Positions 28,253-46,634 of a DNA stretch of 64,000 nucleotides are shown here, in pieces. The position numbers and the translations under genes are program-made. The first letter of the stretch is position 1. The number at the start of each line of letters is the position of its first letter. The notes under the pieces were generated by a model. It had not been told where the DNA came from. It searched no databases and saw only the letters and a list, made by a program, of their open reading frames with translations. The DNA is from Helicobacteraceae bacterium (GTDB lineage Bacteria; Campylobacterota; Campylobacteria; Campylobacterales; Sulfurimonadaceae). Location of the stretch: NCBI GenBank assembly GCA_013138865.1, contig WTBY01000037.1, forward strand, positions 62,001 to 126,000, written 5' to 3'.

Positions 28253-29419
28253 ATGAAAAAACCTTTTACTTGGGATCAATACTCAGATCAACCATCAATC
28301 ATTCGCGATCGCTCTTTTAAAAAGATGATGAGACGACGTGAACTATTCTCACTAATCAAAACTATTTTGATCTCACTTGTAGTTTTACCTATAAGTTTTT
28401 TACTTATGAGCTTTACTAAAAGAAGAGACATAAACTCATCAGAATTTTTTGGAATGAGTATTAACTTAGATGAGCACACTACTTTAAGTAAAGAGCTAAT
28501 AGAGGAGCTTGGCGTAGAGAGTATACTTATACGTTTTCCTTTATGGGAAATGAAACGAATAGAAGAGTACAAAGAGTTCATAGAGTCATTTAAAGAGAAA
28601 AAAATACTCATAAACATTATGCAAGATCGAGAACATATAGAAGACTTAGAACTTTTAAAGAGTGACTTACAAAAAGTTTTTAAAGAGTTTACTCCGTATA
28701 CAAAAAGCTTCCAAATAGGAACAACGATCAACAGAGCTAAATGGGGCTTTTTTAGTGTAAATGAGTACTTGAAATTTTATGAAGTGGCTTACAAACTAAA
28801 AAGTGAGTTTAATAACTTAGAGTTAGTAGGCTCAAATGTTATAGATTTTGAGTACCATTTTACAGCTCACACACTATTTAACTTCACAAAAATTAAGTAT
28901 GATATTTTAGGTACACTTTTATATGTTGATCGCAGAGGTGCACCAGAAAAGACTCAAATGGGCTTTAACCTTATTAACAAAATAAAACTACTCTCTTCTA
29001 TGGTTATGTTAAGTCCAAAAGTTAAAAATAGAGTCTATATAACAGAGACTAACTACCCTATAAGTGGAACTGCTCCTTACGCTCCTACAAGTGAATACGA
29101 GTGTGTAAGTGAAGAGGATTACGCTAACTATATGGAGCGTTATTTTTTACTAGCTTTTGCAACTCAAAGAGTTGAGAAAGTATTTTGGCACCAACTTATA
29201 GCTTCAGGTTACGGTTTGATCGATGTTCGTGATGGTGAGCGAAAAAGAGAGGCATATAAAGCTTTTAAAAATATGTATACACATTTAAAAGATGCTAAGT
29301 TTGTAAAATTTAACACTTGTGTTAATTACTACACTTTAGGGTGTGATACTCCACGTGGTAAACTATTTGTTCAGTGGGGTGAAAAACCAATTTATAGATA
29401 TGAAAGTGAGAAGTCATGA
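28253..29419 (+). CDS. Membrane-anchored TIM-barrel, glycoside hydrolase-like protein
   Basis: 388 aa from the second Met (MKKPFTWDQY). One N-terminal TM helix (about 32-54), then a periplasmic domain with TIM-barrel-like strand order: FFGMSINLDEHT, VESILIRFPLWEM, ILINIMQDREH, SFQIGTTINRAKWG, LVGSNVIDFEYH, RVYITETNYPISG, VEKVFWHQLIASGYGLID. The Glu in ITETNY resembles the strand-7 nucleophile of clan A glycosidases. No exact family recognised. It sits between two heptosyltransferase genes and overlaps waaF by 4 bp, pointing to a role in LPS or surface polysaccharide. Confidence 0.65.
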   Translation: MKKPFTWDQYSDQPSIIRDRSFKKMMRRRELFSLIKTILISLVVLPISFLLMSFTKRRDINSSEFFGMSINLDEHTTLSKELIEELGVESILIRFPLWEMKRIEEYKEFIESFKEKKILINIMQDREHIEDLELLKSDLQKVFKEFTPYTKSFQIGTTINRAKWGFFSVNEYLKFYEVAYKLKSEFNNLELVGSNVIDFEYHFTAHTLFNFTKIKYDILGTLLYVDRRGAPEKTQMGFNLINKIKLLSSMVMLSPKVKNRVYITETNYPISGTAPYAPTSEYECVSEEDYANYMERYFLLAFATQRVEKVFWHQLIASGYGLIDVRDGERKREAYKAFKNMYTHLKDAKFVKFNTCVNYYTLGCDTPRGKLFVQWGEKPIYRYESEKS

Positions 29420-30372
29420 AAATTTTAGTAGTTCTTCCAAACTGGCTAGGTGACGCGGTTATGGCGACTCCAGCTATAGAGTTACTTTGTGAAAAGTACA
29501 AAGATGTAAAACTTACTTTCGTAGGATCCTTTGTTGCGATCGAAGCTCTAAAATACCACCCAAAGTGTGAAGCTTTTTTTATAGATGAGACAAAAAAAGA
29601 GAGCAACCGTTTTTTAGCTACTTACAAACTTGCTAAGAAGTTAGGTAGTTTTGATCTTGGGGTTACTTTTAGAAACCAGCTTCACTCTTCACTACTACTG
29701 TTCTTTAGCTCTTCAACTACTACGATCGCTAAAAAGAGTTGGCATGCTTCTTTGTTTGTTAACAAAACTGTAAAAGAGTTACAAAACTCACACTTAGTTG
29801 AGAAATACGCACACATTGTAAGTGAAACGAAACCATCAAGTTTAAAACTATACATAGAGGCTAAAAAGTCTGACAAACCTCTACTTGGAATTAACGCAGG
29901 TGCAACCTATGGAAGTGCAAAACGCTGGAGTAGTGATCGCTTTGCAGAAGTTGCTGTACACTTTAGTGATCGCTACAATATAGTTCTTTTTGGTGGTCCT
30001 AATGAAGTTGAAATAGTCAATGAGATCCAAAAGCTTATAAATACAAGTGGTGTAAAAAACGTAACCAACCTAGCAGGAAAAACAACCATAAAAGAGTTGT
30101 GTGAAAATATAGCTTCACTAGATCTATTTGTAACAAATGACAGTGGACCAATGCATGTAGCAGCAGCTTATCAAATCCCAACACTGTCCATATTTGGACC
30201 AACAAAGTTTAAAGAGACTTCACAATGGATGAACCCCAAAGGCACAATTGTAAGACATGACATAGAGTGTTCTCCTTGTATGAAAAGAGAGTGTCCTATA
30301 AAAACTCATGAGTGCATGGTAGGTATAAACTCAACAGAAGTTATTGAAGTTATTGAAAAAGAGTTGTTGTAA
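29416..30372 (+). CDS. waaF: Lipopolysaccharide heptosyltransferase II
   Basis: Adds the second heptose to the LPS inner core. 318 aa, GT9 family: start MKILVVLPNWLGDAVMATPA is the WaaF form (N-W-x-GD), followed by LTFVGSFVAIEAL, GINAGATYGSAKRWSSDRFA and LFVTNDSGPMHVAAAYQIP (the conserved ND-S-GP-MHVA). A Cys-rich stretch CSPCMKRECPIKTHECM near the end is common in epsilonproteobacterial WaaF. ATG overlaps the end of the TIM-barrel gene (ATGA). Confidence 0.95.
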   Translation: MKILVVLPNWLGDAVMATPAIELLCEKYKDVKLTFVGSFVAIEALKYHPKCEAFFIDETKKESNRFLATYKLAKKLGSFDLGVTFRNQLHSSLLLFFSSSTTTIAKKSWHASLFVNKTVKELQNSHLVEKYAHIVSETKPSSLKLYIEAKKSDKPLLGINAGATYGSAKRWSSDRFAEVAVHFSDRYNIVLFGGPNEVEIVNEIQKLINTSGVKNVTNLAGKTTIKELCENIASLDLFVTNDSGPMHVAAAYQIPTLSIFGPTKFKETSQWMNPKGTIVRHDIECSPCMKRECPIKTHECMVGINSTEVIEVIEKELL

Positions 30373-30378: not shown

Positions 30379-30437
30379 GCCTATTTAAATAGTTTAGAAT
30401 GTGTGCCTATTTAAATAGTTTAGAATGTGTGCCTATT
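30379..30437. repeat. 26-bp tandem direct repeat, two copies plus 7 bp
   Basis: Unit beginning GCCTATTTAAATAGTTTAGA repeats perfectly at 30379-30404 and 30405-30430, then GCCTATT begins a third copy. Each unit contains the palindrome ATTTAAAT. It lies 7 bp after the waaF stop, at the left edge of the accessory island. Confidence 0.9.
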
Positions 30438-30556
30438 CTAAGTTCTAATATTTTGTAATATTCGTTGAATGAATAGTTAGGTAACCATAAATCTAAATGT
30501 TAAGAAAAATTAAAGTATAATTCTAAATTAAAATAAATATAAAAGGGTTTTAGCTT

Positions 30557-31639
30557 ATGTTTGGACAACTGAACCACTTGAAAATAAATGGTTATAAATC
30601 TATTAAATCACTAGACTTAGAGTTAAAACCCTTAAATATAATAATTGGTTCAAATGGCGTTGGTAAAAGTAATTTTATTGGTTTTTTTAAGTTTATGAAA
30701 AAAATTATAGATAAAGATTTACAATTTTACACAGCACAGCAAGGTGGAGCCAACAAAATACTATGTTTTGGAAGTCAGACAACTGATGAAATTAATTTTA
30801 ATTTAACATTTGATCCAAATGGATATAGTGCAGTATTAGTGCCAGGAAATGATGATAATTTAATTTTTAAGCAAGAAAAAACATCTATAGTAACTAGTGC
30901 TAAAAACTTTTTAAAAGACAACTTTGGTGGGAAAGAGTCTAATTTACCTAACAATTATTCTGCTAATGTAAATGGATTTGTAGTTGAATATATTAATGAC
31001 TGGAAAGTATATCACTTTCATGATACTAGCGCTACTGCTAAAGTAAAACAAACCTGCAATATAAAGGATTATCGTACTTTAGCTTCAGATGGAGCAAATA
31101 TAGCAGCTTTTTTATTATATACTAGAGATAATAATGAAAAGTCATATACCCAAATTGTTAAAACAATTCAAAGGGTTGCACCATTTTTTCATGATTTTAA
31201 ATTGGAACCAGAAATAAATAATCCTGAAACTATAAAATTAAAATGGAAGCATAAAGGAACAGATGACTATTTTGATGCTAATGATTTGTCAGATGGAACA
31301 TTAAGATTTATCTGTTTAACAACCTTACTGCTACAACCAAACTTACCAAAAATTATTCTGCTAGATGAACCTGAACTAGGGTTACATCCTTTTGCTTTAA
31401 TATTATTGGCAAGTATGTTTAGAAAAGTATCTAAAAAGACACAAATCATTGCCTCTACTCAATCAGTTACTTTAGCAGATAATTTTGATATCGAAGATAT
31501 AATAATAGTTGATAGAGTTGATAATTATTCAAAATTTAAAAGACTAAATAAGAATGAATATAAAGATTGGCTAGAAGAATATAGTTTAGGTGAAATTTGG
31601 CAAAAGAACTTAATAGGTGGAGTTCCAACTTATGATTAG
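30557..31639 (+). CDS. AAA (ABC-type) ATPase of a two-gene defence-like module
   Basis: 360-aa ATPase of the COG4637/AAA_21 type. Walker A IIGSNGVGKSNF at about residues 31-42 follows the typical start LKINGYKSIKSLDLEL; the signature LSDGTLRFICLTTLLLQP at about 243 and Walker B IILLDEPELGLHPFAL at about 265 follow, then IIASTQSVTLADNF. The gene overlaps by 8 bp the DUF4276 gene. ATPases of this class paired with an effector gene occur in OLD/Gabija/Septu-like anti-phage systems; this particular pairing is often seen in islands. A TATAAT lies at 30516-30521. AT-rich like its surroundings. Confidence 0.85.
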   Translation: MFGQLNHLKINGYKSIKSLDLELKPLNIIIGSNGVGKSNFIGFFKFMKKIIDKDLQFYTAQQGGANKILCFGSQTTDEINFNLTFDPNGYSAVLVPGNDDNLIFKQEKTSIVTSAKNFLKDNFGGKESNLPNNYSANVNGFVVEYINDWKVYHFHDTSATAKVKQTCNIKDYRTLASDGANIAAFLLYTRDNNEKSYTQIVKTIQRVAPFFHDFKLEPEINNPETIKLKWKHKGTDDYFDANDLSDGTLRFICLTTLLLQPNLPKIILLDEPELGLHPFALILLASMFRKVSKKTQIIASTQSVTLADNFDIEDIIIVDRVDNYSKFKRLNKNEYKDWLEEYSLGEIWQKNLIGGVPTYD

Positions 31640-32273
31640 AATAGCAATTTCTGTTGAAGGACAGACAGAGGATGAGTTTTGCAAACAAGTTTTACAACCA
31701 TACTTTAGAAATAAAAATATTGAATTAAAACCTGTGATTGTTACAACAAAAAGGCAAAACTGTGGAATAAAACATAAAGGTGGATGTATTAATCTTGATA
31801 GGATTAAAAATGAGATTACAAAACTATTGCAAAGTTTTGATTATGTTACTACATTTTATGACCTATACGGATTCGATATAACAGGAGAATTCACAGCTGA
31901 TGAATTAGAAACAAAAATAAGTGCATTATTTTCTGAAGATAGAAGACTTCTTCCATATGTTCAAAAATATGAATTTGAAACTTTACTTTTTAGTAAACCA
32001 TCATATTATGAAGAATACTTTGAATCAAATGCTAAAGCTGACATTGAACAAATTATTACTAGTTGTGGCGGAGTAGAAAATATTAATAATTCAAAGGAAA
32101 CAGCACCTTCAAAGCGAATTATTAAATTCTTTGATAAGTACAATGAACAATATGATAAAGTTTTCCATGGGGCGAGCATAGCAGATGATATCGGTTTAAA
32201 AATAATAATAGATAACTGCCCTAGATTTGCACAATGGCTAAAAAATATTGAAAGTTTACCTAACAAAGCCTAG
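31632..32273 (+). CDS. DUF4276 family protein, partner of the AAA ATPase
   Basis: 213 aa. DUF4276 hallmarks: RIAISVEGQTEDEFCKQVL at the N-terminus (conserved E-G-x-T-E), the GG of KHKGGCINLDRIKNEI, VTTFYDLYGF (D-x-Y-G), and LPYVQKYEFETLLFSKP (H/Y-E-F-E-A/T-L-L-F). The acidic residues recall a TOPRIM-like nuclease site, which is an inference. ATG lies 8 bp inside the ATPase gene; a longer non-ATG start upstream is less likely. Probably the effector of the pair. Confidence 0.85.
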   Translation: MIRIAISVEGQTEDEFCKQVLQPYFRNKNIELKPVIVTTKRQNCGIKHKGGCINLDRIKNEITKLLQSFDYVTTFYDLYGFDITGEFTADELETKISALFSEDRRLLPYVQKYEFETLLFSKPSYYEEYFESNAKADIEQIITSCGGVENINNSKETAPSKRIIKFFDKYNEQYDKVFHGASIADDIGLKIIIDNCPRFAQWLKNIESLPNKA

Positions 32274-32341
32274 CAGTAAACGCTCTCGTCACTGAAGTCA
32301 ACCATTGTAGGTAAATCAATAGAAATGATTAAGAAGAATTA

Positions 32342-32486
32342 CTTAGAAAATAGCTTGAAGTGCAATAAGGGTTGTAATTAACCGTGAGTTCTTGTCCATT
32401 TTTTATGACTTCCTTTGAAGTTCACACTATAAAATAAATCTGATCACTTTTTTATAACTCTCTTGTTTAAAACGCAAAAAGTGTTG
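32342..32486 (-). pseudogene. Decayed copy of the holA 3' end
   Basis: About 140 bp align base for base, without gaps, with the last 140 bp of the intact holA gene 4.1 kb to the right (36477-36616), same orientation, with roughly 20 differences counted by hand. Read on the minus strand it still gives FKQESY and LQAIF followed by a stop, but two in-frame stops interrupt it, so it is not functional. The matching ends where the real gene has its stop codon. Confidence 0.85.
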
Positions 32487-32537
32487 TTATAAGAAAAAGA
32501 TTGTAAACTATATAGCAAAACATAAAAAGGACCTCAT

Positions 32538-33779
32538 ATGAGAAAAAATTATATTTCAGCTATGCTAATAACAACCGTTTTATTTCTACTAAGCGGATGT
32601 AGCGCGTTACAAATTAATACACCTTCTTTAGCTAAAGATACAACTATTAAAACACTAGTAGTCTTGGATCGACCACATACTTTACTAGACTATAGACTAT
32701 ACTATGCACTTACACAATCAACACAAAGACAGAAGCTAGGACTTAAATTTAAACTGCATATGGCAAATCCTTTTTTAGCAAAGAGTATAGATATGCCACT
32801 AAAAATGAGAGAACAGCAACTCTCAATGTATGCAGATATAAACGCTAGTGTAAAGACATTGTTAAAAATTAAAGAGAGTAAGCCTGAGGCTTTAAGTATG
32901 TCATCTGCACTATTTGAGTACATTAAAAATAATCCTAAATCTAACCTAAGTAGTGCCCATATAGTAGCTTCAGAACTGATGAAAGATTTTAATTTAATGA
33001 TCATAGAACCAACAGGTACAACAGCTTTACACCCTCTTTATTATGATAAAAAGCTGATCTCTGTTAATGGTTATGGTGCAAATGTGTTAGATCTTCTTGA
33101 TAGTACTTACCAATTAATGTTAATAGACCATGCATTAAAAAATAACATACCTGTTATAGGAATGTGTCATGGAGCACAGGTTGGTTATGCCTATGCAGGT
33201 GGGGATCTTGAAAAGTACTTTGACGTTGAAGCCGAAGCTAAAAATTTAGCTGGAAATAAGCATATGATTATGGCTCGAGAAAACCCTTATGGTAGTGGCG
33301 TTGAAGTGTGGAACTTAGAGAACTACATTATGACAAGACTCTGGAACGACCATACAACCTCGTTTGAAAATATAAAATATCCAATAGCACCATACATGAA
33401 AAAGGCACTAAATATTTCTGATAATAAAGATATATTTATTAACAAAGAGTTTGCTCAGTCACTTGCTATGAAACTACCAGTACCAAAAGGTGTTGAGAGC
33501 TATACAATGCATCCATTAAGTAGCTTAAATGAGAATATGTCAACTGTTATTACAGACTTTAACTCTCTACCAAGTGAAGATAGTTATGTAACGCAAGAGA
33601 GTACTAAAAACTTTTTAGATGTTTTTAAAGATAAGCTACAAGTAGTGGACTTTTTTAAATATAAGACACTATATGCAACTCAGTACCATCCTCAATATGT
33701 TTATAACGATTATGACACAAGTTTAATATTTGATTTTTATACACAAATGATTAAAGAGAACTATAAAAAATTTAATTAA
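32538..33779 (+). CDS. Lipoprotein with class I glutamine amidotransferase-like domain
   Basis: 413 aa. Signal peptide and lipobox LLSGC (Cys20) place it in the cell envelope. From about residue 150 it has a GATase1-type fold: LLDSTYQLMLIDHALKNNIPVIGMCHGAQVGYAYAGGD, with the nucleophile elbow G-M-C-H-G-A-Q (Cys about 210), and late YATQYHPQY (His about 384). The usual Glu after HP is Gln here. This resembles gamma-glutamyl hydrolase/peptidase C26 proteins. The first 130 residues are helical and unrecognised. An export signal on such a fold is unusual. Substrate unknown. Confidence 0.75.
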   Translation: MRKNYISAMLITTVLFLLSGCSALQINTPSLAKDTTIKTLVVLDRPHTLLDYRLYYALTQSTQRQKLGLKFKLHMANPFLAKSIDMPLKMREQQLSMYADINASVKTLLKIKESKPEALSMSSALFEYIKNNPKSNLSSAHIVASELMKDFNLMIIEPTGTTALHPLYYDKKLISVNGYGANVLDLLDSTYQLMLIDHALKNNIPVIGMCHGAQVGYAYAGGDLEKYFDVEAEAKNLAGNKHMIMARENPYGSGVEVWNLENYIMTRLWNDHTTSFENIKYPIAPYMKKALNISDNKDIFINKEFAQSLAMKLPVPKGVESYTMHPLSSLNENMSTVITDFNSLPSEDSYVTQESTKNFLDVFKDKLQVVDFFKYKTLYATQYHPQYVYNDYDTSLIFDFYTQMIKENYKKFN

Positions 33780-33897
33780 TTTGAAGAGCTATTTTTAATA
33801 AAGTATCAAACTGGTAGCAAAAGTATTTTTTTTTGCTATTTGAATGATATTTAATTGTGTTAAAGTGCAACATACTTAAAACTTAAAGGTCAAAGTT

Positions 33898-36375
33898 ATG
33901 TTCACAAAAAAGAAAATATTTAGTAAAAAACATGTTGCAATATGGGTAAGTTTAACTGCTTTACTTTTTGTAGGTTGTGACAGTAATGAAAAGCCAGTCT
34001 TTAGTGGTAAAGTTATTGGTAGTCACTATGAGGGAGCAAAAGTTTTTATAGACTTAAATGATAACTTATTACACAATCAAGATGAACCATTCACAATTAC
34101 TGCAAAAGATGGTAGTTGGACTCTTGCCAATCCTGAAACTAAAGTATTCAATATTGTTGCAGATATTTCAGTAGGAAATACTGCTTATAAATTCAACTCA
34201 ATACCAATGATGAGAAAAGTAACAAAACCATTAAAATTTATTGCTTCAACACAAAGTACTGGTATAGATGGGCAAATTATGGTTAGTGCAATTTCTACTA
34301 TGGTTTACAAAGAGATGAAGAGTAGTTCCACATCATTAGAAATTGCTCAAGCTTCAGTAGCAAAAGAGCTTGGTGTTGAAGTGTTTGATATGTTAAATGA
34401 TTTTGATGTTCTAGAAAGAACTGAGATTACTGATCAGCTACAATTTGCTTCTAACATGGAAACTTCAGAACTTGAGACTAGCCCGGTACATGAAAGTTCT
34501 TCAGATGATAATACAAATTCATGTAAAAAGAAGTCAGGTTTTTTTAGTTTTTTAAAAAAAGGGGTTAGCTTTGTTGTAAAGGATCCAGAAGTAGTTGCAG
34601 CCACCTCAAGTCAACTAGTAGTTTTAAATGATGTGGAAGAAGATGATGATGATATAGATCCACCTGAGCCTGACCCTGCAGACAATCCAGATCATGATTA
34701 TACATGTCAGTTAAATACTATGATTGGTATTCAAGAAAATATTGAAGGAAATGTAACACAAATCAATTCTGAACTTAAGGTTGCAGATAGTTTATTGACT
34801 GATATTTATAATCAGATGATAGAGGATAATGAAGCAAAAGCACAAGAACAGATTAGTAAATTTCTAGTTGCTGCAAAAACTACATGGCAAGACTTTAACG
34901 ACAATTTTTTACCTGCAAACTCTAATCTTGAATTCGTTAAAAATTGCGTTAGTATGAAATATATAAGTGCAACAAATGTTTTTAATAACACTTCTGCTAA
35001 TGATAATAATATATTCGCACTTATAACCTATGTAGACACTTTACTAGGTTCTGGATTAGCTGATGACCAAATAATACAAGCTATGCTAAGTGCTAAGGTT
35101 ACACTAGAAAGTGAGAATAAGGTTACATCTACTCAAGGTACCAAAGGTGATGATATTGTTACACAAATGCTACAAAGTGGTAATAGTGCATTCTATATAT
35201 TTATGCAAATTGCTACCGCACTACAACAAACATATAATCTTGAAGCAGCAAATGCACTGTTTATATATTCTCAAATAAATGAAACTATGTGTTCTGATGA
35301 TAGTATTCAACTATTTATAGCTACAGATGGAATAAAAATTAAAGATACATTATTCGACAATATAACAACTTTGAATCAAACATATTTTGCAAGATTTAAA
35401 AAATTACAAGAGCTTATTATTAAATACTCTGGTTTACATAGTGACCATATGGATAATATCAATCCTGATTTATCAGATGATGTACCATCTGCTTCAAGTT
35501 ATGCTGGTGTGCCAAATGGAGATTGGACTAATGAGGGAACACTCTTTACACCAATGATACTAGTAGGTTCAGACTATAATGTAACTGGTTACTATGATGG
35601 TGTAACCTTAACAAGTGTGAACCCATATGATAGAAGCTCTAGGACAAGTTTAGATCTAAGTGACTGTTTAGATCCGTCTACAGATGCACCTACCTTGATG
35701 ACATATGGAACTATCTCCAATGAAATTAATAAAACTAATCAAAAGTTATCTTGTGGTTGGCTAAATGCCAGTAAATATTCATGGTTAATTACGAAAGAGC
35801 TCGGACATACTAGAGAACCTCCTTATGCGTGGGCTCATGGTATTGGTGAGGGTGATGCTTATAATACATATATTTATCCAGATAGTGCCTTTAATACCTT
35901 CTACCAGGGAAAAACTCTAATAAAAAATGGTGATGAAGAACATAAACCTGTTGTTGATGATAAAAATAACTTAAAGGTAGCAAGTAACAGCACAAAGGCA
36001 CAAACAATACAGTTTACATCACCAAATGGTGAAAAAGCCTTATTTCAGCTTGGATATAAAACAAAAAATAATGCAGCTTCCGGAGCATCTATAACTTGTG
36101 GCTCATCAGGTGAGGGAGAGTATTCGAATGATGACTATTCATGGACTTGTACAGGTGTTCAGTATGCTGATAAGTATTTAGAGAAGTTACATATTGGATT
36201 TCCTAAGACAAGTGGTGATAGGTATACTATCTACTTCGGATTCCATGGTAAGAATGTAGAGAAAAATCGTTATGCCAATGGGTATCTTGATCATTGTGAT
36301 TTAGGAGATTTTAGCTGTGCAAAAAAATTATACAAGGATTATAATAGCTATACTCTAATACCTTGGGTCCAATAA
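33898..36375 (+). CDS. Large lipoprotein, 825 aa, function unknown
   Basis: Signal peptide with lipobox LLFVGC (Cys about 27). Residues 32-90 (FSGKVIGSHYEGAKVFIDLNDN, then DGSWTL) look like an SdrD-B or carboxypeptidase-regulatory-like beta domain, often found on surface proteins. A highly acidic linker (EEDDDDIDPPEPDPADNPD) lies near 245-265, a helical middle follows (280-510), and the C-terminal third is rich in Gly, Trp, Tyr and Cys (SWLITKELGHTREPPYAWAH). No family recognised for the last 550 residues. It is 118 bp after the amidotransferase-like lipoprotein, on the same strand. Confidence 0.7.
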   Translation: MFTKKKIFSKKHVAIWVSLTALLFVGCDSNEKPVFSGKVIGSHYEGAKVFIDLNDNLLHNQDEPFTITAKDGSWTLANPETKVFNIVADISVGNTAYKFNSIPMMRKVTKPLKFIASTQSTGIDGQIMVSAISTMVYKEMKSSSTSLEIAQASVAKELGVEVFDMLNDFDVLERTEITDQLQFASNMETSELETSPVHESSSDDNTNSCKKKSGFFSFLKKGVSFVVKDPEVVAATSSQLVVLNDVEEDDDDIDPPEPDPADNPDHDYTCQLNTMIGIQENIEGNVTQINSELKVADSLLTDIYNQMIEDNEAKAQEQISKFLVAAKTTWQDFNDNFLPANSNLEFVKNCVSMKYISATNVFNNTSANDNNIFALITYVDTLLGSGLADDQIIQAMLSAKVTLESENKVTSTQGTKGDDIVTQMLQSGNSAFYIFMQIATALQQTYNLEAANALFIYSQINETMCSDDSIQLFIATDGIKIKDTLFDNITTLNQTYFARFKKLQELIIKYSGLHSDHMDNINPDLSDDVPSASSYAGVPNGDWTNEGTLFTPMILVGSDYNVTGYYDGVTLTSVNPYDRSSRTSLDLSDCLDPSTDAPTLMTYGTISNEINKTNQKLSCGWLNASKYSWLITKELGHTREPPYAWAHGIGEGDAYNTYIYPDSAFNTFYQGKTLIKNGDEEHKPVVDDKNNLKVASNSTKAQTIQFTSPNGEKALFQLGYKTKNNAASGASITCGSSGEGEYSNDDYSWTCTGVQYADKYLEKLHIGFPKTSGDRYTIYFGFHGKNVEKNRYANGYLDHCDLGDFSCAKKLYKDYNSYTLIPWVQ

Positions 36376-36472
36376 TTCTCATTACATATTTTCTGAGATC
36401 ATGAAAGAACTAACTTTCACACTCTCAAGAAAGTTTAAATTTAATAATTTTGGAGAGTATTAATAACTTTTT

Positions 36473-37447
36473 CTACAAAATAGCTTGAAGTGAAATAAGG
36501 GTTGCAATTAAAAGTGAATTTTTGTCCATTTTTTGTGACTTCATTTGAAGTTCACACTCCAAAAGAAGCCTGATCGCTTTCTCATAACTCTCCTGTTTAA
36601 AACGTAAACAGAGTTGAGAACGCTCTTTTTCTATAAAAGGTGGTAGTCTATAGCCTAAAATATCTGCCGAATTTACATTTCCATTTATTTTGATGTAGAT
36701 GTAAAATAGGTAAAGTGTTGTTAAAAAACTGCTAACGGCAGTTATTATACGGATCTCATCTTCACCATGTTCTAGTAGTAACTGAAGATCCTTTTTAAAC
36801 TCTTTTTTGTGAAGAAGTGCATTTATAAAAACATCAAGTTTTACCTCAGCGAGAGCAAAAACCAACTCATCTATATCTTTTGTAGTTACAGCTCTATCTA
36901 AAATACCAAGTTTTGAGAGTTCATTAAAAGCTAAAGCTAAATCACCGTTTTGTGCAAGTAAAAGGTGTGAAGCAGAATAACCATCCATATTTATATTTAG
37001 TGATCTTGCTTCTTCAAGAAGAATAGTTTTGGCTTCATTTTCGTATGGAGTAAATAAACGAACACTATCTCCTCCACTCTTCTTGTTAAAAGCAGAAGTT
37101 GCACTTGCTTTATAGTCACTTCCATAGTAGCCATAAATGAAAATATTGTCACTATTTTTTTGAGTAAGCTCTACTAAAATATCTAAATCTTTTTTAGAAA
37201 CTTTTTTTTCACTTTTGATTATTAAAATAGATCGATCACCAAATAGTGATCCTTGAGAAAGATGTGCTTTGGCTAAGTTAAAGTCATACTCATCATGGTA
37301 GAGTGAAACTATCTGTGCGTCAGCAACATTACTAATTCTTTGAACATAACGATCAATTAAAAAGTGACTCTCTCCAAAAAGCATGATCGCACTTGGAAGC
37401 CTTTGAGCTTTGATCGCATTGTCTAACTCATGGCGCTTTAGTGCCAT
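36473..37447 (-). CDS. holA: DNA polymerase III subunit delta
   Basis: Clamp-loader subunit that opens the beta clamp. 324 aa, typical length. AAA-like N-terminal part: MLFGESHFLIDRYVQRI (in place of a P-loop), LFGDRSILIIKSEKKVSKKDL, IFIYGYYGSDYKA; helical C-terminal collar (RLLLECELQMKSQKMDKN...). It starts 0 bp after the rnr stop, so both are one operon. Its 3' end is the source of the decayed copy at 32342-32486. Confidence 0.9.
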   Translation of the reverse strand: MALKRHELDNAIKAQRLPSAIMLFGESHFLIDRYVQRISNVADAQIVSLYHDEYDFNLAKAHLSQGSLFGDRSILIIKSEKKVSKKDLDILVELTQKNSDNIFIYGYYGSDYKASATSAFNKKSGGDSVRLFTPYENEAKTILLEEARSLNINMDGYSASHLLLAQNGDLALAFNELSKLGILDRAVTTKDIDELVFALAEVKLDVFINALLHKKEFKKDLQLLLEHGEDEIRIITAVSSFLTTLYLFYIYIKINGNVNSADILGYRLPPFIEKERSQLCLRFKQESYEKAIRLLLECELQMKSQKMDKNSLLIATLISLQAIL

Positions 37448-39382
37448 CTACTCTGCTTTTTCTTCTACTGTTGCAGTTATTTTTGCAGTTGCTATGTCTG
37501 AAGTTTCAAGTCTAACTATAAGCTCGTCAAAGAGTAAAATAGGAATTGTAGAGACTATGTGAAGACGAGCTCCAATGATCCCCTCTGTAGTCTCAGCAAA
37601 GATCTCATCTTCAGTTTTTATAACACGCGCTTTAAAAGTTTTACCTATATTTTCATCTGCCCAACGAGCAAATTTTCGTTGCATAAAGTCTAACTCAATA
37701 CTACCAGCTTCACGCTCTTTCTCACTAATGATTACACAAAGTGCGTCAATATTACGAAGAACATAAGAACCTTCTTCTGTATCGTTAGAGTTTATAGCTT
37801 TTAAAAGTCGGTGAATGATCAGATCTGAGTAACGTCTGATCGGAGATGTAAAGTGTGAGTAAGCTTCAAAGCCTAAACCAAAGTGACCAACATTGTCAGG
37901 TGCATAACGTGCTCTCATTTGTGACTGAATGATCAGTTTATCAACGTCACTTAAAATGTTTAGTCTCTCAGCTTCACGCTGAATGTAAGTGATCGTCTCT
38001 TTTAGTGACTCTTTAGGCTCGATCATCATACCGATTCCAGCTAACTCTTGGTAAAGTGTTTGAATTTTGCTCTGTGAAGGTGGTTCATGTATACGAAAAA
38101 CTCCACGCTCAAACTTAGAAGCTGCGGCTTTGTTAGCCAAGAGCATACAGTCCTCAACAAGTGAGTGTGATGGAGTATCATCTGCGATCGTAGTCGCTTG
38201 TATAAGTCCAGCTTCATTCAGACTCATTTCGATCTCATCTGAGCGAAAGTCAAAACCTATCTTAAGGCGTTTTTCTCTAAGTGCATCTGTAACTTTTTTA
38301 AGAGGTCTTAAATATGCAAAAACCTCTCTCTCTTCATCATTTTTAGGTTTTAATTTTCCCTCAAAAAAAGCATCAACATCTTCATAAGTAAAACGTCTAC
38401 TTGAGTGAATAATAGCTTCATAAACAGTTGCTTCAACAACTTCAAGTTCTTCTAGTTTCATCTCAAAAACATAAGCTAGTCTATCAACATGAGGTTGAAG
38501 CGAACAGAGTGTTTCACTTAAAGTTCTTGGTAACATAGGTATAGATCTGTGAGGTAGATAGATAGAGAAACTTCTGTAAATTGCTTCAACATCAATAGCA
38601 CCAAAAGGTTTTACATATTCACTAACATCTGCGATCGCCACGTAGATCGTTGAATTTGACTCATCGTAATAGATCGCATCATCAAAATCTTTAGCAGTAA
38701 CAGGGTCAATCGTACAAAATGGAAGTGAACGAAGATCTCTGCGATCACTGTACTTTGAAGCATCAACTTCATTAAACTCACTAGCCATAGCTAAAACATC
38801 TGGCTCAAACTCATCATGTTTATTGTAGGCTGATAGAACTATCTTCTCATCTACAAGAGGATCACTTATATTTCCTAGCACTTCTTCTATTGTATTATTT
38901 TCATTGTTAATTTTAAAAAGAGTCCCAACTTCATAAGTGTCTATCTCTTTTTGAGATATAGGTACACCAATATTGTAAGAGGTTTTTATACTAACAACTA
39001 CTTTTTCATTCTCATGTATCTTTACGATCGCGATCGAGTAACTCTGTTCACGTCCAACAACTTTAACAATTTTTGCACTTGGTCGTCCACGCCCACCTAA
39101 AAGACGTTGAGCTATAACTATATCGCCTTGAGTAGCACCATGCATATCATTAGTATCTATGTAAAGATCACGTACAGCAGTTGCTCCAATGATCTGTAAA
39201 TAGGCACTATTATCTTGCGAAACTGAGAGTGTACCGGCTCTATATTTTGAAGGGAGTGTATAGATGTTTTTTTCGTAAGTGATAAAACCCTCTTCAAAAA
39301 GAGAGTTTACATGTTCACGTTCGTCTTTTGAGATATCTTGTTCATAAAGACCAAGTGTTAGTTTTATTAAAAGGGTTTTAAT
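37448..39382 (-). CDS. rnr: Ribonuclease R (VacB family), probable ATT start
   Basis: 3'-5' exoribonuclease. The RNB core shows LPFCTIDPVTAKDFDDAIYY (four catalytic Asp), AYVFEMKLEEL, LVEDCMLLANKAAASK, HFTSPIRRYSDLIIHR; an S1 domain ends the protein (FKARVIKTEDEIFAETTEGIIG). The first ATG in frame (39145) would cut off a well-formed N-terminal region (KLTLGLYEQDISKDEREHV ... IIGATAVRDLYIDTND) typical of the family. That region is open back to 39382 but has no ATG, GTG or TTG; ATT at 39382-39380, overlapping the upstream gene's TAA as ATTAA, is the only sensible start, giving 644 aa. A frameshift or sequencing error is the alternative. Confidence 0.88.
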   Translation of the reverse strand: MKTLLIKLTLGLYEQDISKDEREHVNSLFEEGFITYEKNIYTLPSKYRAGTLSVSQDNSAYLQIIGATAVRDLYIDTNDMHGATQGDIVIAQRLLGGRGRPSAKIVKVVGREQSYSIAIVKIHENEKVVVSIKTSYNIGVPISQKEIDTYEVGTLFKINNENNTIEEVLGNISDPLVDEKIVLSAYNKHDEFEPDVLAMASEFNEVDASKYSDRRDLRSLPFCTIDPVTAKDFDDAIYYDESNSTIYVAIADVSEYVKPFGAIDVEAIYRSFSIYLPHRSIPMLPRTLSETLCSLQPHVDRLAYVFEMKLEELEVVEATVYEAIIHSSRRFTYEDVDAFFEGKLKPKNDEEREVFAYLRPLKKVTDALREKRLKIGFDFRSDEIEMSLNEAGLIQATTIADDTPSHSLVEDCMLLANKAAASKFERGVFRIHEPPSQSKIQTLYQELAGIGMMIEPKESLKETITYIQREAERLNILSDVDKLIIQSQMRARYAPDNVGHFGLGFEAYSHFTSPIRRYSDLIIHRLLKAINSNDTEEGSYVLRNIDALCVIISEKEREAGSIELDFMQRKFARWADENIGKTFKARVIKTEDEIFAETTEGIIGARLHIVSTIPILLFDELIVRLETSDIATAKITATVEEKAE

Positions 39383-40196
39383 CTTGATCTTGAACTTCTC
39401 TCATGTTATTAATAGCATCTAAAAGAGCAGCATCGTCTAAACCGTTTGCTTTAGCACAAGCAACAGCTTCTGCTGAACTCTCATCTGTTACAACACCATT
39501 TAAAGGTATTGCAATACGAACAGCTTGAAGAATAGCAGATCTAGTTTTTGTTTCAGGATCAGGTGCTTTTGATGGATCTGAACAGTATCTAATAGTACTA
39601 ATTAGTGAGTCTTCAAATCTCCAGTGATCAAATATAGTAGCACTTGCTTCTGCTGTATCTATCTCTATAAATTCAACTTCAGCTTCTTTTATTTTACCTT
39701 CAACAATCATAGCTTTGAAAGCATCTTTATCGCCACTTTCAATAATGATCTGAGCAATTAAAGCTTTACCAATCTCAACTAAGAAAGAAGCAGGAGAAAG
39801 AACATTTAACATAAGTCTATCAATTTTAGCATACCAGTTATTTACAAGAGCAACTTGGTTTTGAGAAAGTGATGCAAACTGATCGTTAGTAATACCGTAA
39901 GCAGAAAGGTCAAGTTTAAAGCTTTTCTTAACGATACTTGCAAGTGCAAAACCACGAATAGCACCCATACCAAAAAGACTAACAGCACGCTCTATAGAGT
40001 TAATTTCACGAGAAAAACCATAAAGTGGTGAGTTAGCTGCTTTTAAAATATCAGCAGTTAGAAGAGGATCAGACTCTAAAACTTTAACCATATCCATGAA
40101 ACTACTCTCAGGATCTTGGTAAATTGCCTCTATTTTAATAGCAGACTCAGGAAGTGGTGGAAGCTGTTTGATCTTTTCTAGTAACTTATCTTTCAT
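39378..40196 (-). CDS. HDOD domain protein
   Basis: 272-aa HDOD (HD-related output domain) protein: LLEKIKQLPPLPESAIKIEAIYQDPE is the canonical opening, followed by VLESDPLLTADILKAANSPLYGF and INSIERAVSLFGMGAIRGFAL. Stand-alone HDOD proteins act in stress and motility signalling without proven enzymatic activity. The gene overlaps the presumed rnr start (ATTAA) and is probably the first gene of an HDOD-rnr-holA transcript. Confidence 0.93.
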   Translation of the reverse strand: MKDKLLEKIKQLPPLPESAIKIEAIYQDPESSFMDMVKVLESDPLLTADILKAANSPLYGFSREINSIERAVSLFGMGAIRGFALASIVKKSFKLDLSAYGITNDQFASLSQNQVALVNNWYAKIDRLMLNVLSPASFLVEIGKALIAQIIIESGDKDAFKAMIVEGKIKEAEVEFIEIDTAEASATIFDHWRFEDSLISTIRYCSDPSKAPDPETKTRSAILQAVRIAIPLNGVVTDESSAEAVACAKANGLDDAALLDAINNMREVQDQD

Positions 40197-40291
40197 TATT
40201 TAACCCATTCGTAAAAATTTATTATGGCATTATACACATTTATTTGTTATGATACAATATTATAAATAATTTTAATGGAGAAATAGAACAA

Positions 40292-40618
40292 ATGCAAAAT
40301 ACTGAAATATTAAATCACTTAGGTTACAAAGTGAATGACGCTCTTTTAGAGCAGTTAGATAGAATTATCGAAAATACACACGGCTTTAGTAAAATTGTTA
40401 AACACGTTATGGACTTACATGATGTTTTAAAAGTTGATGATTCTCATGTAGCAATGTCAAATAGTTTTGATGTTTTTAAAATTAAAGTTGAAGCACCAAG
40501 TGAACCTAGAGTTGAAGAAGCACTAGAAAAAATTAAACACTTTGAAGAGAAATTTAAAGTAATTTTAGAAAAAGTTCAAGGAAAAGAGACTTACTACATT
40601 AAAGGCTTTGCTAAATAG
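40292..40618 (+). CDS. Conserved hypothetical protein, 108 aa
   Basis: Soluble, mixed alpha/beta protein beginning MQNTEILNHLGYKVNDALLEQLDRIIENTHGFSKIVKHVM, with a charged C-terminal half (EEALEKIKHFEEKFKVILEKVQGKETYYIKGF). No catalytic motif or known family recognised; it looks like a small lineage-conserved protein. GGAG ribosome site at 14 bp, own promoter region divergent from the HDOD gene. Its stop overlaps by one base the GTG start of the Gre-like factor, so they are co-translated. Confidence 0.8.
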   Translation: MQNTEILNHLGYKVNDALLEQLDRIIENTHGFSKIVKHVMDLHDVLKVDDSHVAMSNSFDVFKIKVEAPSEPRVEEALEKIKHFEEKFKVILEKVQGKETYYIKGFAK

Positions 40619-41142
40619 TGAGAGTTGAACCAATAACACAAGAGGGTTACGATCTTCTTCTTTTAGAGTTTAAATTTTTAAAAGATAAAGAGAAGCCCAA
40701 AGTAAATAGAGAGAAACAAGAAGCAGCAGCACAAGGTGATAGAAGTGAAAATGCTGACTATCACGCTGCAAAAGAGAAACTGCGTCATATAGATAAACGT
40801 CTTTTTTATCTTAACTCAATGATCGAAAAATCAAAAATAATAGACCCTTCTATACTAAAACACGATCGTGTCTCTTTTGGATCTACGATCACACTCTTAG
40901 ATCTTGAGAGTGATGAAGAGAGAGAAATAACTATTTGTGGTGTGTTAGAGAGTGAGCCTGATAATTTACTTATTTCTATTCACGCGCCACTTTCTCAAGC
41001 TATGCTAGGTAAATTAGAAGGAGATGACTTCATTGTCACCCTTCCAAATGGTAAAAAAGAGTATGAAATAGTTAAAATAGAGTACATAAATATTTTCTCG
41101 CTTAAACAAGTTATTAAGAGTGAAAAAGAGTTTGCTGTATAA
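40618..41142 (+). CDS. GreA/GreB-family transcription elongation factor
   Basis: Reactivates backtracked RNA polymerase by stimulating transcript cleavage. 174 aa. N-terminal coiled coil with ITQEGYDLLLLEFKFLKDKEKPKV and the tip region AAAQGDRSENADYHAAKEK (the catalytic acidic D/E pair: D-x-S-E-N-A-D-Y), then the C-terminal FKBP-like domain (RVSFGSTITLLDLE ... SPL-like PLSQAMLGKLEGD, YEIVKIEY). GTG start, one-base overlap with the upstream gene. Length and the extended C-terminus resemble GreB more than GreA. Confidence 0.88.
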   Translation: MRVEPITQEGYDLLLLEFKFLKDKEKPKVNREKQEAAAQGDRSENADYHAAKEKLRHIDKRLFYLNSMIEKSKIIDPSILKHDRVSFGSTITLLDLESDEEREITICGVLESEPDNLLISIHAPLSQAMLGKLEGDDFIVTLPNGKKEYEIVKIEYINIFSLKQVIKSEKEFAV

Positions 41143-41212
41143 GTAAACTCAGTACAAAGCTGAAAGCTTGTGCTAGAGTTTACTTACTTCTAATTCTGAA
41201 AGAATTATGAAG
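41143..41212. repeat. Double-hairpin intergenic repeat, copy 1
   Basis: Begins directly after the Gre-factor stop. Hairpin 1: GTAAACTC ... GAGTTTAC (8 bp) extended inwards by AGTACAAAGC / GCTTGTGCT; hairpin 2: CTTCTAATTCT / AGAATTATGAAG. The same element occurs after rpsR. It probably ends the transcript, though no T-run follows. Confidence 0.85.
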
Positions 41213-41217
41213 CCACC

Positions 41218-42384
41218 TTAAATAAACCTCTTCTTAGCTTCGGTAACTTTTTTCATATAGTCTCTAGTCTCTTTGTAAGGTAGTGAACTTCTTAATTTAG
41301 AGTAAACTTGACTTGGTGTTAAAGAGTTAATAACTTTAATAGCACGCGATCTATCATTTTTATAAAAAGTCTTTAACACATTCCCACTACCTGTATTGTA
41401 AGCTGCGATCGTACAGTATTCACGTGAGCGTTTATCTGTAATAGCTTTCAAGTATTTAGTGTTAATTATGTGTAAATAGGCACTTCCCATCTCTATGTTA
41501 TTCTTTTCGTTAAATAGGTAAGAGCGTGTTGGCATTCCATCTTTTCCTTTTAAGAACTTCCAACTGTCAACACCTGCACTATGTGGAACTATCTGCATAA
41601 GACCATAAGCTGGTATGGCACTTGTGGCGTAAGGGTTAAAACTACTCTCTGTCTCTATGATCGCATATATAAGTGATGGGTGAAGTTTAAAACGAGTTGC
41701 ATTTTTATTTACAAAAGGTGCTAACTCCTTAGCTTGGTTATGAAGTGCATTTTGAACCATAGCAATATCCACATAGTGAATAGTTTTTTCACCCTTAGCT
41801 GTCTTAATAAGTTTTGATTTATATGAATTTTTGAGTAAGTAAGAGGCAAACTTATTTGTACTCCACTCCCATCTAAGTGGTTTTTTATTCTGATCTACAA
41901 CTAAGTTATAAAGAAAAGGTGTTTTACCAAGCTTTACAGCTTTTGAAGAGTGCAAGTCAACATCACTTGGATCATAAGGAGTAAGAAGAGTCGAGACAAT
42001 AGCCTCCTTTAGCGTTCGCTTTGGGTAGTTGTTATCAATCGTCTCAATTGTTACACTATGGTGTTCAAAATCAACAATAGAGCGACTTTTATAGTCTTGA
42101 AGATATTTAACATACTCTTTTTGTGAAGCTACTTTAGGCTTCTGCTCCCATTTTTCAGAGATAATATTTAAAAATTCTACCAACTGTTTATGTATGATCT
42201 TTTCACTAGCTAAAACTTGTGCGATCGCAGGGTGCTGTGCTCCTGCAAGTCGCAAAGCTTTTTCGGTGTTCATAGTTGGTAGCTGAGTAAGTACATTTAA
42301 ACTTTGGTTAATTTGCGATGGTGTACACGCACTAAAGAGGTTTATAATAACAAGTAGTAGAAAGATAGAAGCTAATTTATTCAT
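41218..42384 (-). CDS. mltC: Membrane-bound lytic murein transglycosylase C
   Basis: 388-aa lipoprotein (signal peptide, lipobox LFSAC) of the MltC type. N-terminal MltC-specific domain (about 50-190; KPKVASQKEYVKYLQDYKSR, VETIDN-like), then the SLT domain at about 235-360: LHPSLIYAIIETESSFNPYATS with catalytic Glu, AYGLMQIVPHSAG, NIEMGSAYLHII, CTIAAYNTGSGNVLKTF. Cleaves peptidoglycan to 1,6-anhydro-muropeptides in the periplasm. Single gene between the repeat and the cytochrome gene. Confidence 0.93.
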   Translation of the reverse strand: MNKLASIFLLLVIINLFSACTPSQINQSLNVLTQLPTMNTEKALRLAGAQHPAIAQVLASEKIIHKQLVEFLNIISEKWEQKPKVASQKEYVKYLQDYKSRSIVDFEHHSVTIETIDNNYPKRTLKEAIVSTLLTPYDPSDVDLHSSKAVKLGKTPFLYNLVVDQNKKPLRWEWSTNKFASYLLKNSYKSKLIKTAKGEKTIHYVDIAMVQNALHNQAKELAPFVNKNATRFKLHPSLIYAIIETESSFNPYATSAIPAYGLMQIVPHSAGVDSWKFLKGKDGMPTRSYLFNEKNNIEMGSAYLHIINTKYLKAITDKRSREYCTIAAYNTGSGNVLKTFYKNDRSRAIKVINSLTPSQVYSKLRSSLPYKETRDYMKKVTEAKKRFI

Positions 42385-42436
42385 AAGCTATATATCGTCA
42401 AAAATAACTTAAGACAAAAATATAACTTTTTTACTC

Positions 42437-42453
42437 AGCAGTTTAAAACTGCT
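42437..42453. other. Perfect hairpin after the cytochrome gene
   Basis: AGCAGTTT and AAACTGCT form an 8-bp stem around one base, 6 bp beyond the stop codon of the minus-strand cytochrome gene. The flanks extend the pairing (CTC/AAG partly). No T-run follows in the minus direction, so it could stabilise the 3' end rather than terminate. Confidence 0.45.
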
Positions 42454-42458
42454 AAGTA

Positions 42459-43571: not shown

Positions 43572-43580
43572 GACTTACCT

Positions 43581-44951: not shown

Positions 44952-45277
44952 TTATATTTCCTTTGTGTGCACTCCATTAAAACTCTTAATGCACAAATAA
45001 TTTGTGTAATTATATTGTAACTAATTTTAAATTATTATAAAACTATTACAATTCAACTATTAAAAAAATTAATATGTAACACCCATATAAAATAATTAGA
45101 AATTTAAAATCTTCACTTTAAAAAAGTTTAATCATTGAAATATTCAAACTAAAAATTTATCTTTAATTTATATAAAAGTAACTTTTTAGTATCATTGCGC
45201 GTTCCTTGCCCTTTGTGATCTATTTATTAGACCATATTATCCCGTAAGAGAGCATATACCAAAAGGAGAAATACTCT
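44952..45277. other. 326-bp intergenic region between porin and rpsF
   Basis: Very AT-rich divergent promoter region. No open frame of note. Near the porin start is a direct copy pair of GTGTGCACTCC/ATGCACAAA-like sequence without clear palindrome; the right third holds the rpsF promoter and leader (TTGTGA-N16-TATTAT at 45213-45240). The leader ATTATCCCGTAAGAGAGCAT to the ribosome site GGAG may contain the S6:S18 feedback RNA, but I could not fold it convincingly. Confidence 0.6.
45213..45240 (+). promoter_or_regulatory. Candidate promoter of rpsF-ssb-rpsR
   Basis: TTGTGA and TATTAT are separated by 16 bp and lie about 40 bp upstream of the AAGGAG ribosome site of rpsF. A GC-richer stretch (CATTGCGCGTTCCTTGCCC) lies just upstream in otherwise AT-rich DNA. 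Confidence 0.45.
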
Positions 45278-45730
45278 ATGAGACATTACGAAAACTTAGT
45301 AATCGTAAAACCGACATTAACTGAAGAAGAGATTCAAGCTAAATTAGCTGAGATCGCAGAAATTATTACATCTAACGGTGGTGAAATCATCGCGCGTGAC
45401 GACATGGGAATGAGAAAATTAGCATACCCAATTGACAAAAACGCACGTGGTTACTACCATGTTTTTTATTACACAATAGATCCTGCATCTATTATGGAAA
45501 TTGAGCGTCGTTTTAGAATTAACGAAGAGTTATTACGTTTCGTTACTATGAAATTTGACACTAAGCGTGAAGTTAAAGCTTGGACTGATCTAGTTGAAGC
45601 AACTAACAAAAGAGCTAAAGCATCTGCTAAAACTGTAGAAGCACCAGCTGCAACAGAAGCTCCGGCAGCAGAAGAAGCACCAGTTGCAACAGAAGTTCCA
45701 GCTACAACAGAAGAAGTAGTAGCTTCTTAA
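45278..45730 (+). CDS. rpsF: 30S ribosomal protein S6
   Basis: 150 aa. The S6 fold is complete: MRHYENLVIVKPTLTEEEI, GGEIIARDDMGMRKLAYPI, RGYYHVFYYTIDP, RRFRINEELLRFVTMKFD. After residue 110 follows a low-complexity Ala/Pro/Glu/Thr tail of about 30 residues (repeats of EAPA, ATEAPA), longer than in most S6. First gene of the rpsF-ssb-rpsR operon, with a strong AAGGAG ribosome site. Confidence 0.98.
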   Translation: MRHYENLVIVKPTLTEEEIQAKLAEIAEIITSNGGEIIARDDMGMRKLAYPIDKNARGYYHVFYYTIDPASIMEIERRFRINEELLRFVTMKFDTKREVKAWTDLVEATNKRAKASAKTVEAPAATEAPAAEEAPVATEVPATTEEVVAS

Positions 45731-45744
45731 TTTAAGGATTATTC

Positions 45745-46323
45745 ATGTTCAATAAAATAATACTGGTAGGTAACTTAACAAGAGACATCGAACTTCGCTA
45801 CTCTCAAAGTGGAACAGCGATCGCAAATACTGCTATTGCTACTACACGTAAATTCACTTCTAATGGTGAAAAGAAAGAGGAAGTTTGTTTCGTAGATATT
45901 ACGTTTTTTGGACGTAGTGGAGAGGTTGCAAATCAATACCTAAGAAAAGGATCTAAGATCCTAATTGAAGGTCGTTTAAACTTTGAACAATGGGTTGACA
46001 AGCAAAATGGTGGTAACAGATCAAAGCACTCTGTGGTAGTTGAAACTATGCAAATGCTTGACTCACGTGCTGATTCTCAAAGTGGTGGTGGAAATAGTAA
46101 TTACAATGCACCAGCTGCAACGCAGCAAGCGCAAAGTAATCAAAACTATGGACAAAATAGTGCTCCTCAAGGTGGTGGTTATAACAAACCTCCTCAACAG
46201 CAATATAGTGCGCCACAACAACAGAATCAACAATACAACGCACCTCAACAAAATCAAGCAGCAAGTATGCCACAAAATAGCATACCGACTATTGATATTG
46301 ATGAAGATGAAATTCCATTTTAG
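45745..46323 (+). CDS. ssb: Single-stranded DNA-binding protein
   Basis: 192 aa. OB fold at residues 1-110 (FNKIILVGNLTRDIELRYSQSGTAIA, VCFVDITFFGRSGEVANQYLRKGSKILIEGRL), a Gln/Asn/Gly-rich flexible linker (about 115-180, several PQQQ and YNAPQQ runs) and the conserved acidic tip DIDEDEIPF that recruits partner proteins. Binds and protects ssDNA at forks. Middle gene of the ribosomal operon, as in most bacteria. Confidence 0.98.
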   Translation: MFNKIILVGNLTRDIELRYSQSGTAIANTAIATTRKFTSNGEKKEEVCFVDITFFGRSGEVANQYLRKGSKILIEGRLNFEQWVDKQNGGNRSKHSVVVETMQMLDSRADSQSGGGNSNYNAPAATQQAQSNQNYGQNSAPQGGGYNKPPQQQYSAPQQQNQQYNAPQQNQAASMPQNSIPTIDIDEDEIPF

Positions 46324-46370
46324 GAATTAATAAAAGATAGAGCCCTCAGGGTTAAATTTGGAGAATTATT

Positions 46371-46634
46371 ATGGCAGAAAAAAGAAGATTTAAAAAAAGA
46401 TATTGTAAATATTGTGAAAGAAAAACAGACTTTATGGACTACAAAGATATTAGTTCATTAAAGTTCTCTCTTTCAGAGCGTTATAAAATTATGCCTCGTC
46501 GTTTAACAGGTAACTGTAAACGTCACCAAGACATGATTGCAAAAACAATTAAACAAGCTCGTGCAGCTGCTTTAATTCCTTACACAGTAAGTAGAAAAGC
46601 GGTAGTACTTACTCCGTTTGAAGAAATTAAGTAA
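46371..46634 (+). CDS. rpsR: 30S ribosomal protein S18
   Basis: 87 aa with the S18 sequence pattern: basic N-terminus [23 protein letters not shown]-like [29 protein letters not shown], and [13 protein letters not shown]. The CxxC ... C/H set (YCKYCE, NCKRH) corresponds to a zinc-ligand form of S18. It binds next to S6 on the 30S platform. Last gene of the operon; a double-hairpin repeat follows at the stop codon. Confidence 0.98.

What the first reader, a model, noticed from the sequence alone, without database searches (positions are those of the whole stretch)
32342..36616. Direct-repeat holA 3' ends flank a 4-kb segment with two lipoprotein genes
An interrupted 140-bp copy of the holA 3' end (about 86% identical by hand count, two in-frame stops) lies in the same orientation 4.1 kb from the intact gene, and ends exactly at the stop codon. 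The segment between carries two unusual lipoproteins. This is the footprint expected if an element inserted at the holA 3' end brought a replacement end and left the displaced end to decay, or if a tandem duplication was later eroded.
Basis: partly seen in the sequence, partly recalled or inferred. Interest (0 to 1): 0.62.

Follow-up and report, generated by a model that had tools for sequence, protein, structure and literature searches.

The report
Displaced holA gene end beside insertions
A bacterial replication gene (holA) has a decaying second copy of its tail 4 kb away, most likely because genes for two lipoproteins were inserted there together with a fresh tail, and next to the old tail sits an integron cassette carrying a probable phage-defence gene pair; such footprints are a known kind of thing, but this one is well preserved.

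Summary
A 144-bp copy of the holA 3' end (32343-32486, minus strand) matches the end of intact holA (36473-37447) at 122/144 bases without gaps, has two in-frame stops and ends at the stop codon. These are the only two copies in the genome. Polarised against 42 relatives, nearly all protein-altering changes lie in the copy, so it is the displaced, drifting one. A dedicated element is not supported: no integrase on the contig, no recognisable core site, no relative with a holA-end remnant, and no sister genome to show the empty site. I favour an insertion that carried its own holA end, joined on one side by homology in holA; a site-specific element and a tandem duplication are not excluded. Two things were missed. 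HEC-01, a candidate defence pair just beyond the old holA end, is an integron cassette (attC at 32255-32313, matching left core site at 30476). And holA has lost its usual neighbour rpsF through a rearrangement. Ordinary in kind, moderately interesting.

The parts
36473..37447 (-). holA, DNA polymerase III subunit delta, intact (324 aa)
   Evidence: NCBIfam NF006302 3e-107 and TIGR01128; single full-length copy
32343..32486 (-). decayed second copy of the holA 3' end, two in-frame stops, ends at the stop codon; inferred to be the original end
32487..36472 (.). inserted segment between the two holA ends (left limit uncertain by up to about 50 bp)
   Evidence: genes absent from the family
32538..33779 (+). 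LP1: 413-aa lipoprotein with a class-I glutamine amidotransferase-like domain (Cys in GMCHGAQ at 208-214; YHPQ at 383-386 where the usual motif is HPE)
   Evidence: Pfam PF00117 8e-8, PF07722 1e-5; motif positions; no full-length relative in family, order sample, plasmids, phages, viral contigs or genome contigs
33898..36375 (+). LP2: 825-aa lipoprotein of unknown function; residues 411-663 resemble a second protein of the same genome (G000:C62), N-terminal part resembles proteins of 12 family genomes at 25-38%
30477..32304 (+). integron gene cassette holding HEC-01A and HEC-01B (limits inferred from the core sites)
30476..30482 (+). left core site G|TTAGGT of the cassette, exact reverse complement of the attC R'' site ACCTAAC (32258-32264)
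32255..32313 (+). attC site of the cassette
   Evidence: covariance model R1, 67 bits, E 9e-14 (this site was among those used to build the model); homologous sites next to integron integrases in relatives
30557..31639 (+). HEC-01A, AAA_21 ATPase of a candidate anti-phage pair
   Evidence: PADLOC PDLC04175 9e-148, Pfam AAA_21 4e-30
31644..32273 (+). HEC-01B, DUF4276 protein of the pair
   Evidence: PADLOC PDLC04188 9e-62, Pfam DUF4276 3e-43
29416..30372 (+). heptosyltransferase gene (waaF-like), left neighbour; convergent with holA
   Evidence: Pfam Glyco_transf_9 8e-42
45278..46323 (+). rpsF and ssb, which follow holA directly in many relatives; here separated from it and in a changed orientation
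   Evidence: synteny in relatives; gene names from knowledge of the families

Best explanation
A DNA segment carrying LP1 and LP2 together with a holA 3' end entered the chromosome inside the last ~144 bp of holA. On the holA side it was joined by homology (shown only as a seamless, intact holA), so the gene kept a working end; on the far side it was joined just upstream of the original end, which was cut off, stayed next to its old neighbour waaF and has since drifted (two stops). The joining was most likely ordinary homologous recombination plus an illegitimate join, or a single crossover with a circle carrying a holA end, not a dedicated integrase (inferred). Separately, an integron integrase inserted a cassette with the HEC-01 defence pair into the 142-bp space between waaF and the old holA end (cassette limits shown; mechanism inferred). 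LP1 and LP2 have stayed open while the old end decayed, so they are probably selected for; what they do is unknown (LP1 may be an envelope-bound glutamine amidotransferase-like enzyme).
For: Two holA ends in direct orientation, the intact one continuous with holA. Changes lie on the copy, not on the intact gene, at conserved residues (Ile in the copy where all 42 relatives and the intact gene have Leu; Met to Arg; Glu to stop). The substitution mix fits a copy released from selection when the two ends were identical or modestly diverged, and rejects mostly pre-existing species-level divergence. Both copies share residues that relatives lack, so the donor was close kin or the cell's own line. 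LP1 and LP2 absent from 227 family genomes. If LP1 and LP2 had drifted neutrally as long, about 22 stops would be expected; there are none. The copy sits beside waaF with only an identifiable cassette between, which gives a simple 142-bp empty site.
Against: No sister species or strain is held, so the empty site has not been seen. The crossover point and the left limit of the insert are not resolved. Similarity stopping exactly at the stop codon is also what a gene-end-restoring integrase would leave. Composition of the segment (30-34% GC) is not foreign-looking. The argument for selection on LP1 and LP2 assumes that they and the duplicated end arrived together.
Confidence: 0.5

Rival explanations
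1. A site-specific integrative element (satellite or decayed island) uses the holA 3' end as its attachment site, carries a replacement end and has lost or never had its integrase.
For: The anatomy is the one such elements leave: gene, new end, cargo, old end in direct orientation, homology ending at the stop codon. The genome has many tyrosine recombinases.
Against: No recombinase in the segment or anywhere on its 137-kb contig; the longest identical blocks are 16 and 15 bp and lie near the gene's end and middle, not at the outer limit of the copy where a core would be expected; no holA-end remnant downstream of holA in 49 relatives checked by self-comparison; no viral or plasmid relative of the cargo.
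Confidence: 0.2
2. Tandem duplication of a unit containing LP1, LP2 and the holA end, followed by loss of the outer LP copy.
For: The two ends may have been identical when one began to drift, as a duplication within the genome would give.
Against: The outer copy of LP1-LP2 must have been lost exactly up to the holA stop codon; no trace of a second LP copy is found; it still needs an earlier arrival of LP1-LP2 next to holA.
Confidence: 0.2
3. A short tandem duplication of the holA end arose first, and the LP genes were inserted later between the copies.
For: Partial gene-end duplications need no donor; the absence of stops in the LP genes would then only mean that they came later (inference).
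Against: Two independent events at one place; nothing points to an insertion inside an existing duplication.
Confidence: 0.1

Closest known systems
Integrative elements that restore the 3' end of a protein-coding target gene (general knowledge of integrase-mediated islands)
   Same: Gene kept whole by a supplied end; displaced original end at the far border in direct orientation
   Different: No integrase, no demonstrable core site, only two cargo genes, no second occurrence
Insertion by homology on one side and an illegitimate join on the other (homology-facilitated illegitimate recombination in naturally transformable bacteria; general knowledge)
   Same: One seamless homologous border, one non-homologous border, duplicated target end
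   Different: Competence of this organism and a donor arrangement were not tested
Integron gene cassette inserted outside an array (attG-type site; Loot et al. 2024 as cited in PMC12444791 and PMC12901181)
   Same: attC with paired R''/R' sites after the last gene, left core site G|TT, lone cassette far from an integrase; genome has an integron integrase
   Different: Two-gene cassette of 1.8 kb; target site not compared with the published attG consensus
HEC-01 candidate defence system (PADLOC-DB)
   Same: Both proteins match their HEC-01 models strongly
   Different: Activity untested; found here as an integron cassette

Membership tests
Integron gene cassette | attC site downstream of the genes: inverted R''/R' pair and inner imperfect stem with an extrahelical base | tested here: met
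   Model R1 67 bits; across 15 sites 88% of cells paired, 5 pairs with changes on both sides (1.3 expected in shuffles, 2 of 500 as high). This site was one of the 15.
Integron gene cassette | Left core site G|TTRRRY complementary to R'' | tested here: met
   GTTAGGT at 30476-30482 is the exact reverse complement of ACCTAAC at 32258-32264; at 6 per 64 kb the chance of this 7-mer in the 184-bp gap is about 2%
Integron gene cassette | The same att sites occur next to integron integrases | tested here: met
   In two relatives with single-contig assemblies (L153, L154) sites lie about 2-5 kb from IntI in the divergent orientation; a third (L157) has four sites in 4.2 kb on one strand
Integron gene cassette | Integron integrase in the genome | tested here: met
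   G000:C11, TIGR02249 307 bits, above cut-off 265, plus two C-terminal fragments; none on the window's contig
Integron gene cassette | Recombination of this site by IntI | not testable with these tools
   needs an excision or integration assay
Site-specific integrative element at holA | Integrase gene in the element | tested here: not met
   only LP1 and LP2 lie between the ends; no tyrosine recombinase on the contig
Site-specific integrative element at holA | Core sequence repeated at both borders | tested here: inconclusive
   the copies have drifted 15%; no long identical core
Site-specific integrative element at holA | Other genomes with cargo at the same gene end | tested here: not met
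   no remnant of the own holA end downstream of holA in 49 relatives
HEC-01 candidate defence system | AAA ATPase and DUF4276 partner in one operon | tested here: met
   genes adjacent, same strand
Class-I glutamine amidotransferase (LP1) | Cys-His-Glu catalytic triad | tested here: inconclusive
   Cys motif present; HPQ instead of HPE; model of the fold failed (pLDDT 34.5)

The most novel reading that the evidence does not exclude
The holA 3' end is the attachment site of a so far unrecognised class of small integrase-less elements in this genus, which bring a replacement holA end and lipoprotein cargo, and which build up beside a stray integron cassette carrying a defence pair.
Probability: 0.1. 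Interest if true: 0.55.

Novelty: new member of a known kind. Interest (0 to 1): 0.35.

Why it matters
It shows in one place how an essential gene survived an insertion into its own end, with the displaced end still readable, and it points to two lipoproteins that seem to be under selection although no other species sampled in the family has them. The neighbouring find, a candidate defence pair packaged as an integron cassette outside any array in a Sulfurimonas-like genome, would extend reports of defence genes in integrons to this group if the recombination and the defence activity are confirmed.

Tried and rejected
Chance match of the repeat: rejected. Divergent ortholog from another species as the source of the replacement end: mostly pre-existing divergence is rejected by the substitution mix, and the intact end is not an outlier in similarity to relatives (rank 7 of 43). 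Origin by the rearrangement that separated holA from rpsF: not a sufficient cause, because staggered inversion breaks leave inverted, not direct, copies, and no holA piece lies upstream of rpsF. The 45-bp sequence after HEC-01B first looked like an insertion-sequence end, because an IS200-like transposase remnant follows its second copy at G000:C54:136.5-136.9 kb; rejected in favour of attC after the relatives' copies and their integrases were seen. The holA-rpsF gap as a mobile-element hotspot: rejected; long gaps in relatives hold ordinary genes such as aspartokinase, queuosine and folate enzymes. Further attC sites in the lipoprotein segment: none. Searches of plasmids, phages, viral contigs and genome contigs for LP1, and of plasmids and viral contigs for LP2: nothing. 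Structure model of LP1 without an alignment: useless. A family-wide search with a holA-end profile reported extra weak matches in G029, G128, G140 and G184 that were not listed; the holA loci of G029, G128 and G140 were fetched and show no remnant nearby; where those matches lie is unresolved.

Full report
What was claimed and what is there. The window lies in G000:C54:62001-126000 of a 3.03-Mb genome in 82 contigs. The closest named matches by holA are an uncultured Helicobacteraceae bin and a Sulfurimonas bin, so it is a Campylobacterota genome of the Sulfurimonas kind, and it is the only genome of its genus held. The reported repeat is real: 32343-32486 and 36473-36616 agree at 122 of 144 positions without gaps, E 1.4e-42, and there is no third copy in the genome. 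The copy has two in-frame stops and ends at the holA stop codon. A weak continuation beyond 32486 (p = 0.01) leaves its other limit open.

Which end is the old one. holA proteins of 42 relatives were aligned. At most sites where the two ends differ in protein, the intact gene agrees with the family and the copy does not: Ile where all 42 relatives have Leu, Arg where they have Met, Leu or Ile, a stop at a Glu. A few sites go the other way or are uninformative. The 22 differences spread 7/5/10 over codon positions. Counting gives dN 0.125, dS 0.36 (ratio 0.35, bootstrap 0.12-1.09). Simulations fit when the copies started identical or with modest divergence and the copy then drifted neutrally for about 0.08-0.17 changes per site; they do not fit when most of the divergence predates the drift. 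Both ends share residues absent from relatives, so they are close kin to each other. The copy is therefore a displaced end, and the end now in use was close to the same sequence when it took over.

The segment between. LP1 (32538-33779) is a 413-aa lipoprotein with a weak class-I glutamine amidotransferase domain (Pfam PF00117, 8e-8); the Cys motif is there, the HPE motif reads HPQ. LP2 (33898-36375) is an 825-aa lipoprotein without a reliable family. Neither has a full-length relative in 227 other genomes of the family, and LP1 has none in a sample of 398 other genomes of the order, nor in plasmids, phages, viral contigs or genome contigs. LP2 shares residues 411-663 with a 685-aa protein of the same genome beside a purB-like gene and a transposase fragment (G000:C62). 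If the LP genes came with the event that displaced the old end, neutral drift for that long should have left about 22 stops; there are none. They are probably under selection.

Surroundings. In many relatives holA is followed within 85-210 bp by rpsF and ssb. In this window rpsF and ssb lie at 45278-46323 in an orientation that implies a rearrangement with one breakpoint at the holA end. None of the relatives examined has waaF next to holA, so the state before the insertion cannot be read from them. Longer holA-rpsF gaps in relatives hold ordinary genes, so the place is not a recognisable mobile-element hotspot, and none of 49 relatives keeps a remnant of its own holA end downstream.

An integron cassette beside the old end. 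Between waaF and the old holA end lie an AAA_21 ATPase and a DUF4276 protein, which match the two components of the candidate defence system HEC-01 in PADLOC (9e-148 and 9e-62). Directly after the second gene is a 59-bp site (32255-32313) that occurs once more in this genome and in 13 other genomes of the family. It has the make-up of an integron attC: outer complementary core sites, a conserved spacer and an inner stem with one extrahelical base, with compensatory changes. In two relatives with single-contig assemblies such sites lie a few kb from an integron integrase in the divergent orientation, and in a third there are four in 4.2 kb on one strand, with variable stems. This genome has an integron integrase at the start of contig C11 (TIGR02249, 307 bits, cut-off 265) and two fragments. 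The left limit is a core site GTTAGGT at 30476-30482, the exact reverse complement of the attC R'' site ACCTAAC. The cassette is thus 30477-32304. Taking it away leaves 142 bp between waaF and the old holA end, which places the copy as the native neighbour of waaF. Sulfurimonas autotrophica is listed with an integrase-only integron and an attC cluster (PMC10295459), and insertion of cassettes at non-classical attG sites is described (Loot et al. 2024, cited in PMC12444791 and PMC12901181). The defence activity of HEC-01 and the recombination of this site are not tested.

How it most likely arose. Shown: two direct copies of the holA end, one intact and continuous with the gene, one drifting and next to the old neighbour; accessory genes between; a separate cassette insertion. 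Inferred: DNA carrying LP1-LP2 next to a holA end recombined with holA by homology on one side and was joined on the other side just upstream of the original end. A circle integrating by one crossover would give the same picture, and so would a site-specific element whose integrase is lost. The last has no support beyond the anatomy: no recombinase on the contig, no core, no second case. Tandem duplication would need the outer LP copy to be lost exactly to the stop codon, and no trace of it is found.

Verdict. The neighbouring defence cassette is arguably the more useful find.

Noticed in passing
window 30476-32313: HEC-01 candidate defence pair packaged as an integron cassette (attC 32255-32313, left core 30476) outside any array; adjacent to the finding.
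   Followed up: yes
G000:C54:136529-136946 (L111:3030-3440): Second attC of the same type near the contig end, followed by a broken IS200-like transposase remnant, beside a 178-aa gene of unknown function.
   Followed up: partly
G000:C11:103-852, C11:30.7 kb, C17:55.4 kb (L134, L143, L144): Integron integrase gene at a contig start and two C-terminal fragments; integron integrases also in relatives L153 and L154, several attC sites in L157.
   Followed up: partly
window 36473-45277 versus 45278-46632: Gene order holA-rpsF-ssb, common in the family, is broken here; rpsF and ssb lie 8.8 kb away in changed orientation, as after an inversion of 36473-45277.
   Followed up: partly
window 33795-33860 and G000:C17:31553-31619: A 66-bp stretch upstream of LP2 is 87% identical to an intergenic region between a solute-binding-type gene and a response-regulator gene elsewhere; possibly a shared regulatory site with a palindrome.
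   Followed up: partly
window 41141-41190 and 46629-46678: Two near-identical palindromic stretches directly after the greA-like gene and after rpsR, in the same orientation (terminator-like).
   Followed up: no
window 30379-30430: Perfect tandem duplication of 26 bp right after the waaF stop codon.
   Followed up: no
window 30478-30512 and 32308-32341: The bases after the cassette's left core site and those after its attC are about 80% alike over 36 bp; chance, or a sign that the cassette entered a similar sequence.
   Followed up: no
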